From positions 124,001 to 188,000 of the forward strand of contig NZ_QFWH01000002.1 of assembly GCF_003149375.1 (NCBI RefSeq): DNA of 64,000 nt, given 5' to 3'. The notes under the pieces are model-generated. The model worked only from the letters and a program-made list of their open reading frames with translations, ran no database searches and was not told the origin of the DNA. Shown piece after piece: positions 19,531 to 24,756 of this stretch. Source of the stretch: Vampirovibrio chlorellavorus. Its GTDB lineage: Bacteria > Cyanobacteriota > Vampirovibrionia > Vampirovibrionales > Vampirovibrionaceae. The position numbers were made by a program, and so were the translations under genes. Position 1 is the stretch's first letter. Each line of letters opens with the position of its first letter.

Positions 19531-19558
19531 TTGACAGTTGGGTTTCATTGGCCATTAT
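19531..19558 (+). promoter_or_regulatory. Sigma-70-type promoter of the Asn-rich exported protein gene
   Basis: Perfect -35 TTGACA (19531-19536), 16-base spacer and -10 CATTAT (19553-19558, four of six). Predicted start near 19565 leaves a 5' leader of about 60 bases before the ATG at 19628. Confidence 0.65.
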
Positions 19559-19627
19559 GGGAGAGGTTAGTACCAAATTGTTAAAGTCAAATTTAGTTAA
19601 AGTCATTCTTTGGAAGGAAGTACTTCA

Positions 19628-20554
19628 ATGAAGAATAAATTATTCGCTTTGGCCTTGTCCTTGGCCGTTGTCAGCACCGCTGGCGCTTTCGCTGTTTCCG
19701 ATAACAACGATTTCAACAATGGCAGCAACATCGGCAGCACTGTTGGCAACACCACCAGCGCCGATAACGATCAGGTTAACGGTAACGATCTGTTCTCCAA
19801 CAACAACCTGACTGACGCCAGCCAGGACAACGACAACCTGAGCGACAACAACAGCTTCAACGATACCAACACCAACAACGATAACAACAGCTTCAACGAT
19901 ACCAACAGCAACAACGAAACCACCAGCCTTTCCTTGACTGATGCTTTCAAATCCAACGATGGCAACGACAACAACGTTAGCAACGATGGCAACGATGGCA
20001 ACGTCAGCAACAATGGCGATGACAACAACCAGGCCAACGGCAACAGCTTGCTGTCCGGCAACGAAACCAACGCCTTCTCCAAAAACAACCTGACCAGCAA
20101 CGATGGTAACGATAACAACGTTAGCAACGATGGCGATGACAACAACACCGCTAATGTTGCTTTGAGCGACAACTTCAACAATAAGAGCGTTAACGATTCT
20201 AACAACGACAACAGCCAGAACTTTGACCTGAACGTTCAGGACAACGTGCTGGGTGCTGGCTTGAACGCTTCCAACGCTTGCGTACAAGACAACGGCAACC
20301 TGATCAACGGCGACCAGCTGAATGGCTACGGCGTGATCGGTTCCGGTTCTTACATCGGTACTAACAATGGCTTGACCGAAGGTTCCGTGGGTGTGGTTGG
20401 TGATATGACCAACGCCATCTTCGTGAACGCTGGTGATCTGGGCGCTGGCGGCGGCACCATCAACTCCGCTAGCTTCTACAACACCACCGTGGGTCTGAAT
20501 GCTGCCTCTGTCACCGGTGACATTACTGCAACCCAAAACAACATCAACTTCTAG
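19628..20554 (+). CDS. Exported, extremely Asn/Asp-rich low-complexity protein
   Basis: A 308-residue protein of unknown function. ATG 19628 is preceded by GGAAGGAAG, and a clean Sec signal follows (MKNKLFALALSLAVVSTAGAF, cleavage near residue 22). From about 24 to 205 roughly half the residues are Asn or Asp, with Ser, Thr and Gly, and imperfect repeats: SFNDTN twice and SNDGNDNNVSNDG twice. The last 100 residues are less biased (YGVIGSGSYIGTNNG, AGDLGAGGGTINSAS, TGDITATQNNINF) and could form beta structure. It contains one cysteine. Asn is coded almost only by AAC, suggesting high expression. Its own promoter and strong site make it likely an abundant surface or secreted protein, perhaps calcium-binding, adhesive or matrix-forming; all of that is inference. 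Confidence 0.85.
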   Translation: MKNKLFALALSLAVVSTAGAFAVSDNNDFNNGSNIGSTVGNTTSADNDQVNGNDLFSNNNLTDASQDNDNLSDNNSFNDTNTNNDNNSFNDTNSNNETTSLSLTDAFKSNDGNDNNVSNDGNDGNVSNNGDDNNQANGNSLLSGNETNAFSKNNLTSNDGNDNNVSNDGDDNNTANVALSDNFNNKSVNDSNNDNSQNFDLNVQDNVLGAGLNASNACVQDNGNLINGDQLNGYGVIGSGSYIGTNNGLTEGSVGVVGDMTNAIFVNAGDLGAGGGTINSASFYNTTVGLNAASVTGDITATQNNINF

Positions 20555-20573: not shown

Positions 20574-20601
20574 CAGATTCCAGGCTTCGGCCTGGGATCT
20601 G
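20574..20601 (+). terminator. Stable UUCG hairpin after the Asn-rich gene
   Basis: A 12-bp stem with one G-U pair (20574-20585 with 20590-20601) closed by a TTCG tetraloop, 19 bases after the stop. The following bases are only weakly T-rich, so it may be a leaky terminator or an mRNA 3'-stabilising structure that makes the upstream gene more abundant than the downstream ones. Confidence 0.6.
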
Positions 20602-20674: not shown

Positions 20675-21697
20675 ATGACTATTTTTCTGTTGAAGAAATC
20701 AGCTAAACTTTCTCTTAGGCTGTTCACCATTCTCGCATTTTTAATTGTACTCACGTCTCAAGTCATTCCTACTCAGGCTGAGGGTGAGCAAGGCTCTGCA
20801 ACTACAACCATTAATAACTCTACTATGAAAGATGTTTGTATGGGTCTCAATGGGAGTAACGTATCGGGTGAGTTATCTGCATTGTGCAACAATATTGGTA
20901 TTAATATTGGTGGTAACAGAACTCAGGTTTACGCTCCCACGCAGTCCAATGCGGTGGGCGGTACATCCGCCCTGGTGCTGCCCCGCAACCCCCTGGCCTT
21001 GCCCAACGCCAACTTGGGGCGCTCCAACTTCGGCTTGCAATTCGGTTTGAACAACAACCCCATTTTAGGGAATCTTAACTCCGTCAACGGCAAAACCGAT
21101 GCTATGAGCTGGTTTTTGCAAGGCGGTTTGACCATTCCCTTTGGCAAAATTCCCGATATTATCGCCAACCCTCGCAACAACCAGCTGGATGACATCCGCC
21201 AGCAACGAATGATGGACGAGCGGGAAGTGTTTGGCTCCCTGCAAAATCAGCAAAACGCCCGGGCCAACGTGCAAGGTAAAGTGGTCCGCCTGAACGCTTA
21301 CAATTACGCTACTACGGCCTCTCCCAAGTTGGAAGGTATTCGGGATGGCCTGAGACAGGTCGAATCTGAAAAGGCGAGCCTGTTGAGCGCTCCCAAGGTG
21401 CTGGCTCTGGCCGATGCTGCGGTTTATTCCAAGCCTTTGGGCAAAGGCGATAAAGTCGGCTCCACTACCACTGGCGAAGAATATCGTTACATTGGCCACA
21501 CCAATTCCGGCTGGGTGAAGATCATTATGTCCAATGGCCGGGAAGGCTGGGTTAAAGGGCAGTTTGAGTACCTCAAAAACGACTATACCGAGATTGATAC
21601 CGTTACCTTGGGCAATCCCACCGATGACCTGAAGAACGCCCAAACGCCCCTTCGTGGTAAATTGGCCACCACGACCTCCTCTTCTCGTAAACAATAA
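20675..21697 (+). CDS. Exported protein with C-terminal SH3-like domain
   Basis: A 340-residue protein with an N-terminal signal (hydrophobic residues about 10-30, cleavage near TQA-EGEQG). The mature N-terminus has two cysteines 16 residues apart (DVCMGLN, SALCNN) that could form a disulfide, in an Asn/Ser/Thr-rich context like the preceding gene. A middle region contains SWFLQGGLTIPFGKIPDI, then a charged helical stretch (QQRMMDEREVFGSLQNQQ). Residues about 245-305 resemble a bacterial SH3 domain (AAVYSKPLGKGDKVG, GWVKIIMSNGREGWVKGQF), which usually binds cell-wall or periplasmic partners. Exact function unknown. The first 250 bases are more AT-rich than the rest. Confidence 0.8.
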   Translation: MTIFLLKKSAKLSLRLFTILAFLIVLTSQVIPTQAEGEQGSATTTINNSTMKDVCMGLNGSNVSGELSALCNNIGINIGGNRTQVYAPTQSNAVGGTSALVLPRNPLALPNANLGRSNFGLQFGLNNNPILGNLNSVNGKTDAMSWFLQGGLTIPFGKIPDIIANPRNNQLDDIRQQRMMDEREVFGSLQNQQNARANVQGKVVRLNAYNYATTASPKLEGIRDGLRQVESEKASLLSAPKVLALADAAVYSKPLGKGDKVGSTTTGEEYRYIGHTNSGWVKIIMSNGREGWVKGQFEYLKNDYTEIDTVTLGNPTDDLKNAQTPLRGKLATTTSSSRKQ

Positions 21698-21731: not shown

Positions 21732-22199
21732 ATGACGCTGACGCTTACGAAATTTCAAAGACAGACTTGCTTACTGACAGCGTGCTTGCTGTCTTTAAGT
21801 CTTTTCTGGGCTACCTCTGGCTGGGCCTTGCAAAACGCTACCCCGTGGACCTCTGAGCGCAGCGTTCAGAACCTGGTGTATGGTTCATCCTCTTTCAACG
21901 ATGTGACTATGGCGCTGGGACGCCCTCCGGATGAGATTGTGCGTTCTGAGCAAATGTATCCGCCCATCGTCAATTTTTACTATTTTGATGAAAACAAAAG
22001 CGGCGCGGCGACCGTCTTTGTTTTTGAGAATGGTTTTTTAGTGGGCATGCAGTATAAATCGCCTGATAATCAGTATATGGATGTCAGTTATTTCTTGCAG
22101 AATAACGGCGATCGCCAGTTGAACTTCCCTTACACCGGTGGCTATCAGGGCTACTTCCCTTTCTTTCCCCTATACGGCATGCGAGGGGCGTATTACTAA
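21732..22199 (+). CDS. Small exported protein, unknown
   Basis: A 155-residue protein with a signal peptide (hydrophobic about 12-32, cleavage after GWA). The mature part has VQNLVYGSSSFNDVTMALGRPPDEIVR-type spacing that resembles the beta-helix start of SmpA/BamE-like or 'outer membrane assembly' small folds (a position followed by a GxPxxI turn), but I cannot assign it. The C-terminus is aromatic and Gly-rich (PYTGGYQGYFPFFPLYG). It lies 34 bases after the SH3 protein, and its TAA overlaps the ATG of the next TPR protein by one base, so it belongs to that operon. Confidence 0.75.
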   Translation: MTLTLTKFQRQTCLLTACLLSLSLFWATSGWALQNATPWTSERSVQNLVYGSSSFNDVTMALGRPPDEIVRSEQMYPPIVNFYYFDENKSGAATVFVFENGFLVGMQYKSPDNQYMDVSYFLQNNGDRQLNFPYTGGYQGYFPFFPLYGMRGAYY

Positions 22200-23521
22200 T
22201 GCGCAAGGATTCCCGTCTTGTTGGTTGCCTGTTAAGTTTACTTCTGGTTTTTGCTTGTGGTCCTTTTGTCGCCCTGGCCGATATCACGGGGAATCTGGTA
22301 CAGGCTCGGGCTGCCATGCAGACCAAAGACTGGTCCGCGGCCAATTATGAATGGCGGCAGGTTTTGGCTGGTGATCCGGATAATATTGAGGCCAAAGTCG
22401 GTTTGGCGCAATCGTTGTTCAATACCAAATTTTATGAAGAATCGATTTCCCTGCTGGAAAGCATTCCGCCTCAAAAACGCCCCCTGATTGCCTCTTTGGG
22501 GCTTGCACGCACTTACGCCATTGCGCAGGATTACTTGAAAAGCCGAAATGAGTACATCGCTATTTTGCGCAATAATCCTTACGAGGTGAACGCCTTTATG
22601 GAGTTAAAGGCGTTGGAGCCCAAGTTGACCGAACCTGAGCGAAAGGCTATTGAAAGCAATTTGGCTAAAATTGCCAAAATGGCTCAGGCCAAGGGTAATC
22701 AGGCTTTGGATGAAGCCCGTTATAAAGATGCCGCTCGCTATTATGAGGTGGCTGCCGCTCAACTGAAAACGGTTGGGATTATTAATGATTACGGCATTAT
22801 TCTATTGCTAGCCGGTGATTACCCAAAGGCACATCAGCAGTTTATGTTATTGCGCTCCAAAAATAAAATGGGCTTTTCCGAGGTGACTTCCAACGCTTCC
22901 ATAGCCTCCTTGAGTGTCGGGAACTTGGCGCAGGCCAAGAAAGAAATTCTGGATGCCATAAAAGACGCGCCTTCAGATAAGCTCAAGGCTCAGTTATACA
23001 ATAATATGGGTTTCATTCTGGAGATGAGCCGGAAGCGCACGGATGCCAAGTTTGCCTATCAGCACGCCCTGGCCCTCAACCCCAATTTAGTCACCGCGCG
23101 TAAAAACCTGGCCTTTGTTTTACAAGCTAATCAGGATTACAACGAAGCCATCCGGGAGTATCAGGAGATTCTCAAAAAACATCCCAACGATGCGGAGTTG
23201 TGGAATCGGTTGGGTTTTGTCTATGAATTACAGTACAAGTCCAGACCTGCGGTGGCAGCCTATAAAAAGGCCATTCAAGCGGATCCCAGGAACAAGGACT
23301 CCTATTACAACCTGGCTCTGTTGTACAAAAAAATGAATCGCCTGAAAGAAGCCAACGACACTTTGAAAACTTACATGGAAGGTTTGTACGCCGATATTGA
23401 GTCGGCCACTCCTACCGAGCAGGAGCAAAACAAAGTTCAGGGCGCCGCTGCTGAAAAAAATCCACTTAAGTATGTGGTGTTGTTTCCTTCATCCCCTAAA
23501 GTAACAGCCAAGTTGCAATGA
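22199..23521 (+). CDS. Exported TPR-repeat protein
   Basis: A 440-residue protein with an N-terminal signal (LVGCLLSLLLVFACGPFVALA; the Cys residues do not form a good lipobox). Nearly all the rest is tetratricopeptide helices. Clear units include YEWRQVLAGDPDNIEAKVGL, then AKFAYQHALALNPNLVTARK, IREYQEILKKHPNDAELWNR and AAYKKAIQADPRNKDSYYNL. TPR scaffolds hold protein partners together in the periplasm or at the surface. It overlaps the upstream gene by one base and the downstream metzincin gene by four (ATGA), so the three are co-translated; the metzincin is the obvious candidate partner. Confidence 0.87.
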   Translation: MRKDSRLVGCLLSLLLVFACGPFVALADITGNLVQARAAMQTKDWSAANYEWRQVLAGDPDNIEAKVGLAQSLFNTKFYEESISLLESIPPQKRPLIASLGLARTYAIAQDYLKSRNEYIAILRNNPYEVNAFMELKALEPKLTEPERKAIESNLAKIAKMAQAKGNQALDEARYKDAARYYEVAAAQLKTVGIINDYGIILLLAGDYPKAHQQFMLLRSKNKMGFSEVTSNASIASLSVGNLAQAKKEILDAIKDAPSDKLKAQLYNNMGFILEMSRKRTDAKFAYQHALALNPNLVTARKNLAFVLQANQDYNEAIREYQEILKKHPNDAELWNRLGFVYELQYKSRPAVAAYKKAIQADPRNKDSYYNLALLYKKMNRLKEANDTLKTYMEGLYADIESATPTEQEQNKVQGAAAEKNPLKYVVLFPSSPKVTAKLQ

Positions 23522-24756
23522 AATTTCAGGTTTCTCTGCTTAATTTTTCCCTATGTTTGATGAGCGCCCTGTTATGTGGCTTGCTCGTGCCGGTCTCCGC
23601 TCAGGAAATGGATCATGATAAGACTTTAGACACGGTGGAAATTCAGGTTCTGGGGCGGAAGTACGAGAACCTGTCTCAGGAGCGCCGGTTGACCCAGCTG
23701 GAGAGGCAGTTGAACGCCAATCCGCCGGTCAAGGCCAGTTCCCAGTATCGGGTCAATCAGCTAATCAATGCCCACCAGCGTAGTGTTTCTGAGGCGCAGC
23801 GCCGAGAGGCGGTAAAAGCCTACAATACGGGCATTGATTTGTCTCGGCAGGGCAAAAATAATGAAGCTATTGCTATTTATCAACAGGCCTTGACCCTGGA
23901 TCCTTATCTGATTCCCGCTTATAACAACCTGGCCAATTTACAGGAAAGTCTGGGGGCTTTTGATCAGGCGCAAGGGACCTATCAAAAAGCCATTGAAATG
24001 GCTCCCAATGAACCTTTATTGCATTTTAATCTTGCGGTGATTCAGGAGAAGCAAGGTAAAATCATGGACGCTTATGAGCATTACCGCCAGTACGTCAAGC
24101 TCTCCTCCAGCCCGGATCCGCAAATTGTGGAGCTGGTGCGCAGTTTTGATGCTCGTCGTTTTTCGGCCAGCAGGGAGCCTGATTATTCCACGCTTACCAC
24201 CAAGGAGTCCCGCGGGGAGCGTCTGATTTGGCAGGACTGGCAAATGCCATTGCCTGTTTTCGTGGTGCTGAATGATCCCTCTCAAGCGTTGTTTGTTCCG
24301 GAAGTCTACAAGGATTTTGACACATGGACGCATGCTACGCAGGGCCGACTCCGTTTCCGGGAAGTCGGATATCCTGATCAGGCCCGCATTTTAATTACTC
24401 TTAAGCAGGGACCTTTAATGGATGCCAACGCCAGCATTGGTCACGCCAGCTTTAACATTGAAACGCTGAATACAGAAGATCCTATGAAGCGCTTGCGGGT
24501 GACCATTGTGGTTAATACTGGGGAACCAGGCACTGCTATCACCCTTGAGAACCGGAAACAGCAGGTACGTAAGCTGGTTTTGCACGAGCTGGGACATGCT
24601 ATCGGTATTTGGGGGCACAGCAGCGATCCGGGGGATATTATGTATACCCATCCTCTGGTGTCTGAACTGTCCAGCCGAGACGTGCGAACAATCCAGAAGC
24701 TGTACGGCATTCAGCCGGTACCTGCCCCGGTGACCAGTTATTCGGGTCAGCCTTGA
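23518..24756 (+). CDS. Exported TPR-metzincin (matrixin-like) zinc metalloprotease
   Basis: A 412-residue protein: signal peptide (cleavage near SAQ-EMDHD), two to three TPR units (about 95-200, for example AIAIYQQALTLDPYLIPAYN), then a metzincin protease domain. The zinc site is LHELGHAIGIWGHSSDPGDIM (about 359-378). It has HExxHxxG followed by a third His one position later than in classic matrixins (HExxHxxGxxGH), then the Met-turn DIMYTH. The Glu and all three His are present, so it should be active. It is the last gene of a coupled set and converges on a small exported-protein gene. A second TPR-metzincin lies 1.9 kb further on. Confidence 0.88.
   Translation: MKFQVSLLNFSLCLMSALLCGLLVPVSAQEMDHDKTLDTVEIQVLGRKYENLSQERRLTQLERQLNANPPVKASSQYRVNQLINAHQRSVSEAQRREAVKAYNTGIDLSRQGKNNEAIAIYQQALTLDPYLIPAYNNLANLQESLGAFDQAQGTYQKAIEMAPNEPLLHFNLAVIQEKQGKIMDAYEHYRQYVKLSSSPDPQIVELVRSFDARRFSASREPDYSTLTTKESRGERLIWQDWQMPLPVFVVLNDPSQALFVPEVYKDFDTWTHATQGRLRFREVGYPDQARILITLKQGPLMDANASIGHASFNIETLNTEDPMKRLRVTIVVNTGEPGTAITLENRKQQVRKLVLHELGHAIGIWGHSSDPGDIMYTHPLVSELSSRDVRTIQKLYGIQPVPAPVTSYSGQP

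What the first reader, a model, noticed from the sequence alone, without database searches (positions are those of the whole stretch)
19531..20554. Abundantly expressed, Asn/Asp-rich secreted protein of unknown function
Perfect -35 box, strong ribosome site, near-exclusive AAC codons, a clean signal peptide and about 180 residues that are roughly half Asn/Asp with imperfect repeats. This points to a major exported product. Asn/Asp-rich repeats can bind calcium or build extracellular matrices and adhesive fibres. It resembles no family I know.
Basis: partly seen in the sequence, partly recalled or inferred. Interest (0 to 1): 0.7.

Follow-up and report, generated by a model that had tools for sequence, protein, structure and literature searches.

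The report
Secreted asparagine-rich protein with matched partner
A relative of the alga-killing bacterium Vampirovibrio carries a gene for a probably abundant exported asparagine-rich protein whose tail matches the front of the protein made by the next gene, which suggests that the two lock together into a surface material.

Summary
The gene is real: 19628-20554, 308 aa, Sec-type signal peptide, a 173-residue middle that is 49% Asn+Asp, and a 110-residue tail. No Pfam, NCBIfam or PDB relative was found. The window is from genus Vampirovibrio. High expression is supported indirectly: AAC 70 against AAT 8, a near-invariant leader, a 12-16 bp hairpin just after the stop in 8 of 9 loci. Asn-richness is not the conserved feature: in relatives the middle becomes (DNS)n or Asp/Lys repeats. 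Conserved are the last ~35-50 residues and the neighbour, a bacterial-SH3 protein. The same module stands at the mature start of that SH3 protein and nowhere else in the genome. Within a genome the two copies match better than mismatched pairs (best of 40,320 permutations; control regions show nothing), without shared DNA tracts. Best reading: a two-part surface polymer, major subunit plus wall-bound partner, working like CsgA/CsgB or FapC/FapB but unrelated by sequence. Calcium motifs are absent. The V. chlorellavorus assembly has the gene frameshifted and one of five genus genomes lacks the cluster, so it is not shown to be essential. Fibre, binding and adhesion are inferred.

The parts
19531..19558 (+). 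sigma-70-like promoter TTGACA-16-CATTAT
   Evidence: both hexamers identical in three Vampirovibrio species
19580..19605 (+). leader with two direct repeats GTTAAAGTCA (19580-19589, 19596-19605), the only copies in the window
   Evidence: 2 found, 0.06 expected; conserved in three species
19614..19620 (+). ribosome binding site AAGGAAG, 7 nt before the ATG
19628..20554 (+). focal gene: secreted Asn-rich repeat protein, 308 aa
19628..19693 (+). signal peptide (residues 1-22, cut site read by eye)
   Evidence: similar starts in homologs
19694..20221 (+). low-complexity Asn/Asp/Ser/Thr middle, the fast-changing part
20222..20551 (+). conserved tail, 110 residues
20450..20551 (+). copy 1 of the shared module (C-terminus)
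   Evidence: (E 1.3e-10)
20574..20601 (+). 12-bp intercistronic hairpin with TTCG loop, 19 nt after the stop codon
   Evidence: (z -5.0)
20675..21697 (+). partner: exported bacterial-SH3 protein, 340 aa
20798..20929 (+). copy 2 of the shared module (mature N-terminus of the partner)
   Evidence: E 1.0e-13
21416..21562 (+). SH3_3 domain of the partner
   Evidence: 30.8 bits, cut-off 27
21732..22199 (+). p155, exported-looking protein of unknown family, next after the partner gene in all 10 loci
22199..23521 (+). TPR protein, accessory (not in all loci)
23518..24756 (+). TPR + Peptidase_M10 metzincin, accessory (not in all loci)

Best explanation
The gene encodes the major subunit of a two-part surface polymer. 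Step 1 (supported indirectly): it is made in large amounts from its own promoter and leader, and the hairpin after its stop lowers the amount of the downstream products relative to it. Step 2 (inferred from the signal peptide): it leaves the cytoplasm by Sec; how it crosses the outer membrane is unknown. Step 3 (inferred from sequence matching): its C-terminal module docks on the like module at the start of the SH3 protein, which holds it at the cell wall through the SH3 domain and may seed assembly, as CsgB does for CsgA and FapB is proposed to do for FapC. Step 4 (inferred): the polar, hydrated, fast-changing middle forms the bulk of an extracellular fibre or gel; p155 and, where present, the TPR/metzincin proteins help to assemble or trim it. 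Step 5 (speculation): in Vampirovibrio this material helps the predator to hold on to its algal prey, where a pad of unknown composition has been seen.
For: The gene pair is conserved: 8 complete pairs in 10 loci, 2 at contig ends. The module profile matches only these two proteins at E below 1e-7 in the 97 genomes searched; next best hit E 0.002. A profile of the N-protein tails scores the partner's start above 1000 of 1000 composition shuffles in 7 of 8 loci. Own pairs match best: z-trace 51.7 against a permutation mean of 23.9, best of 40,320; 6 diverged loci best of 720; without L086 best of 120; four control region pairings show nothing (fractions 0.64 to 0.83). The longest DNA word shared by the two copies is 7-9 nt in 7 of 7 loci tested, so recent gene conversion is unlikely. 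A hairpin follows the stop in 8 of 9 loci, six different sequences. Codon use as in or beyond EF-Tu. The SH3 domain is confidently modelled (residues 241-300, block means pLDDT 85-90) and its top matches are SH3 domains of cell-wall peptidases (Z up to 9.2).
Against: No fibre, binding, export or expression data exist. AlphaFold gives no fold for the tail (pLDDT 43) or the partner's start. The reverse profile (partner modules against N proteins) beats all 300 shuffles in only 5 of 8; it fails for the window protein (222 of 300 shuffles as good), V. chlorellavorus (47) and G002 (21). The V. chlorellavorus partner fails the forward test (702 of 1000 shuffles as good) and its own pair scores z -0.2. 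In that predator the focal gene is frameshifted after the signal peptide, and G001 of the same genus lacks the cluster. No outer-membrane pore was recognised in the operon; no CsgG in the genome. AAC is not preferred in L083 (35:56) and L085 (43:49).
Confidence: 0.45

Rival explanations
1. The protein is a disordered anionic stalk or spacer: it is tethered to the wall through its tail and the SH3 partner, and its hydrated middle forms a brush or gel that keeps distance or binds cations without ordered motifs, but it does not polymerise.
For: The middle is poor in hydrophobics (7-23%) and net negative in all 8 homologs (-10 to -118). Its sequence changes freely ((DNS)n, Asn/Asp-Gly, Asp/Lys) while the protein length varies from 308 to 683 aa. 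Docking through the module is equally well explained.
Against: Codon adaptation and the hairpin suggest a product in excess over its anchor, which a one-to-one tether would not need. Known calcium motifs are absent.
Confidence: 0.3
2. The two modules are not an interaction pair; they are sorting or export tags recognised by the same machinery (for example p155), so they track that machinery in each genome.
For: Same short module on two exported proteins of one operon; p155 is present in all 10 loci. Co-variation within genomes would follow if both fit one receptor.
Against: A tag would hardly sit at opposite ends of the two proteins; no other protein of the genome carries it.
Confidence: 0.12
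3. The protein is an adhesin or decoy substrate processed by the neighbouring TPR/M10 metzincins.
For: The metzincin gene follows in 7 loci.
Against: L082 and L085 lack the TPR/metzincin genes after p155; the genome has 10 Peptidase_M10 matches, most of them elsewhere.
Confidence: 0.08
4. Within-genome matching of the modules comes from repeated duplication or gene conversion between adjacent genes, with no functional meaning.
For: The copies lie about 250 bases apart, as gene conversion would favour.
Against: Longest shared DNA word 7-9 nt; identical residues use the same codon in only 62 of 128 cases summed over 7 loci.
Confidence: 0.05

Closest known systems
Curli: CsgA major subunit and CsgB nucleator
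   Same: Exported Asn/Gln-rich repeat protein plus a second operon protein with the same motif; CsgB seeds CsgA (PMC10192328, passages read).
   Different: No curlin repeat or CsgG in the genome; only one end module is shared, not the repeats; the partner carries an SH3 domain.
Fap: FapC/FapB with the FapD peptidase
   Same: Major subunit, related minor subunit proposed as nucleator, peptidase in the operon (PMC6173800, passages read).
   Different: No Pfam match; no FapF-like pore recognised in the operon; the peptidase is a metzincin and not in all loci.
Streptomyces rodlins RdlA/RdlB
   Same: Pair of secreted surface proteins needed together (PMC5314377, outline and abstract read).
   Different: Rodlins are highly similar proteins; here only a short module is shared. 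No Pfam match.
Dentin phosphophoryn and staphylococcal SD repeats (recalled, from no call)
   Same: Long low-complexity acidic triplet or dipeptide stretches, compare (DNS)n of L082.
   Different: No homology claimed; no phosphorylation, sortase signal or calcium data.

Membership tests
Curli (CsgA/CsgB) | curlin repeat PF07012 | tested here: not met
   0 matches in the own genome; control rings in E. coli
Curli (CsgA/CsgB) | CsgG outer-membrane pore PF03783 | tested here: not met
   0 matches in the own genome; rings in 4 control genomes
Curli (CsgA/CsgB) | amyloid fibres nucleated by the minor subunit | not testable with these tools
Fap (FapC/FapB) | Fap amyloid repeats | tested here: inconclusive
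   no Pfam family for the whole protein or for 8 tails; no Fap profile was searched on its own
RTX / EF-hand / TSP3 calcium repeats | GGxGxD, Dx[DNS]x[DNS]G or DxDxDGxxD repeats (patterns recalled) | tested here: not met
   0, 1 and 0 copies in the middles of 8 proteins, not above shuffles
Bacterial SH3 (SH3_3), for the partner protein | Pfam SH3_3 above cut-off; SH3 fold | tested here: met
   30.8 bits against 27; model 237-305 against SH3 chains, Z up to 9.2
Prion-like Asn/Gln-rich domain | about 30 or more Q/N per 80 residues (rule recalled) | tested here: inconclusive
   31 in the window protein; 28-33 in 7 of 8 homologs, 18 in L086, so not a family-wide trait

The most novel reading that the evidence does not exclude
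A new two-component extracellular polymer of Vampirovibrionales, in which a low-complexity major subunit and a wall-anchored SH3 nucleator recognise each other through co-evolving, lineage-specific end modules, and which forms part of the attachment pad of these predators.
Probability: 0.22. Interest if true: 0.8.

Novelty: new variant of a known kind. Interest (0 to 1): 0.6.

Why it matters
The pad with which Vampirovibrio attaches to Chlorella has been described as of unknown composition and was proposed to be a type IV secretion system (PMC4451040, passages read). This operon gives a short list of proteins to look for there. It would also be a protein polymer whose bulk sequence is almost free to change while a small end module is kept in step with its anchor: a natural, lineage-specific docking pair.

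Tried and rejected
Database routes that gave nothing: Pfam, NCBIfam and PDB sequence searches with the whole protein and the tail. The PDB profile search with tails gave two weak hits, named as a hexapeptide transferase and a gamma carbonic anhydrase (E 0.12 and 0.94), left-handed beta-helix proteins by recall; kept as a lead only. Phage records: no match. Viral contigs with the partner: none.

Structure: AlphaFold of the tail was uninformative; of the partner only the SH3 domain was confident. No fold search was made for the tail.

Rejected ideas: calcium motifs; curli proper; an Rfam element in the leader (one sub-threshold chance hit on the other strand); dependence on metzincins. Weak composition-driven BLAST hits in L047 and in a 2014-aa frame of L054 were set aside. 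A first hairpin scan missed the focal hairpin because terminal G-T pairs broke its filter; it was redone with a corrected rule.

Literature: 8 searches. Vampirovibrio with asparagine or amyloid gave no paper on such a protein in the titles and abstract starts listed; the five-term predator search gave 0. The library holds only open-licence papers, and supplementary tables of PMC4451040 were not read, so its list of predicted highly expressed genes was not checked.

Dropped before counts: G003a was left out of the hairpin, pair and module tests because its gene is split between two contigs; G006/L084 has only a 3' end upstream and was left out of the pair tests; L082 was not; the test left out V. 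chlorellavorus.

Full report
WHERE IT IS. The window lies in a 2.79-Mb genome (G000). Same-genus genomes G002 and G004 have contigs equal in length to the records of a Vampirovibrio sp. MAG and of Vampirovibrio chlorellavorus NCIMB 11383. So the organism is taken to be a member of genus Vampirovibrio, non-photosynthetic relatives of cyanobacteria that include a predator of Chlorella.

OBSERVATION. The ORF is 19628-20554, 308 aa, with a signal peptide, a 173-residue middle of 34% Asn and 15% Asp, and a less biased tail of 110 residues. AAC makes up 70 of 78 Asn codons, against 160 of 308 in 19 other genes of the window and 41 of 52 in EF-Tu, EF-G and an enolase-like gene together (the last two named from their sequence, recalled). 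The promoter match alone is not above chance, but the -35 box and 76 of 78 positions from the -10 to the start codon are the same in three species, with two GTTAAAGTCA repeats that occur nowhere else in the window.

RELATIVES. BLAST found clear homologs only in two other genus members among 97 genomes, but the next gene, an exported SH3 protein, led further: it occurs in 8 of 18 genomes of the order (9 loci), in none of the 79 other genomes, and in one more named MAG, L082. Directly upstream of it there is a signal-peptide protein of low complexity in 8 of these 10 loci; in G003a the pair is split between two contig ends and in G006 only a matching 3' end is present at the contig start. One of the 8, in V. 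chlorellavorus itself, is frameshifted between signal peptide and body; whether this is real or an error of an assembly from 36-year-old freeze-dried material is open. G001, of the same genus and 97% complete, lacks the cluster and shows no such gene after lptF.

WHAT IS CONSERVED AND WHAT IS NOT. The middle is not conserved: Asn/Asp/Gly in the window, (DNS)n in L082 (DNSDNS 47 times, lag-3 z 10.3), Asn/Ser/Thr in L083 and L085, Asp/Lys repeats with period 15 in L086 with 10% Asn. It is net negative in 8 of 8. The tail and the gene pair are conserved.

THE SHARED MODULE. The last 35-50 residues of the Asn-rich protein and the first residues of the mature SH3 protein are versions of one module, roughly N.GVG.NG...GS.LNN.QN.....N.N. 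A profile of both copies finds, among 97 genomes, 14 places with E below 1e-7, all in these two proteins, 1 to 2 per locus. A profile built only from the N-protein tails scores 7 of 8 partner starts above 1000 of 1000 shuffles; the V. chlorellavorus partner fails. The reverse profile is weaker: 5 of 8 above all 300 shuffles, not the window protein, V. chlorellavorus or G002.

THE COPIES KEEP STEP. If the two copies had parted long ago and drifted apart, the pair within a genome should be no more alike than pairs drawn from two genomes. It is more alike: the sum of own-pair z-scores is the best of all 40,320 pairings of 8 loci, of all 720 for 6 diverged loci, and of all 120 without L086; four control pairings of neighbouring regions show no excess. 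The DNA of the two copies shares no word over 9 nt in 7 loci, and identical residues use the same codon in 62 of 128 cases, so recent gene conversion is not the cause. Matching at protein level points to the two modules touching each other or the same third partner. The one genome whose own pair does not match (V. chlorellavorus, z -0.2) is the one with the frameshifted gene; a single case, but what relaxed constraint would look like.

EXPRESSION LAYOUT. Between the gene and its partner a perfect or near-perfect hairpin of 12-16 bp follows the stop codon by 8-19 nt in 8 of 9 loci examined (absent from L084/G006). Three of the 8 share one sequence; the six distinct sequences are not alike. Folding z-scores run from -2.7 to -6.0. 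Only 3 hairpins of 11 bp or more were found on this strand in 64 kb; six Markov controls gave 1 to 6. Such hairpins commonly protect the upstream message or thin out transcription downstream (established knowledge), which fits a major product followed by minor ones.

HOW IT WOULD WORK. The layout (abundant low-complexity subunit; partner with the same docking module and an SH3 domain close to those of cell-wall peptidases; a constant small protein p155; TPR and metzincin genes in most loci) is that of a surface polymer with an anchor or nucleator. This is how CsgA/CsgB works and FapC/FapB is proposed to work (passages read). It is not a member of curli: curlin repeats and CsgG were sought and not found, and no Pfam family matches. 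Whether the middle is an amyloid, a gel or a mere brush cannot be told; the Q/N rule is met or nearly met by most versions but not by L086, so cross-beta stacking of Asn cannot be the common principle unless only the modules stack.

LINK TO PREDATION. Soo et al. 2015 report a discrete attachment pad of unknown composition and propose a type IV secretion system for pad and spike (PMC4451040, passages read). The operon is a candidate for pad material, but the frameshift in the studied predator and the absence from G001 speak against it being indispensable. I rate this step as speculation.

VERDICT. A real, lineage-specific, uncharacterised secretion product whose conserved logic is the matched module pair, not the Asn repeats. 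Interest 0.6.

Noticed in passing
L041 6088-8227 and L046/L048 (G003): One Vampirovibrio genome holds two versions of the cluster at separate places, one of them with an Asp/Lys repeat protein.
   Followed up: partly
L079 8797-11104: In V. chlorellavorus NCIMB 11383 the focal gene is frameshifted after the signal peptide, and the partner's start has diverged from the module.
   Followed up: partly
19580-19605: Two GTTAAAGTCA direct repeats, 16 bases apart, in a leader that is nearly invariant between species: a possible operator.
   Followed up: partly
own genome, contigs C2, C3, C4, C6: Ten Peptidase_M10 matches in a 2.8-Mb genome; two of them, both in the window, are fused to TPR domains.
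   Followed up: no
L054 1-6043: G005 has, shortly after lptF, an open frame of at least 2014 aa with 18% Asn+Asp; unrelated beyond composition as far as seen.
   Followed up: no
21732-22199: p155 follows the SH3 gene in all 10 loci, has no Pfam or NCBIfam match, and by eye recalls BamE/SmpA-like proteins (recalled, not tested).
   Followed up: partly
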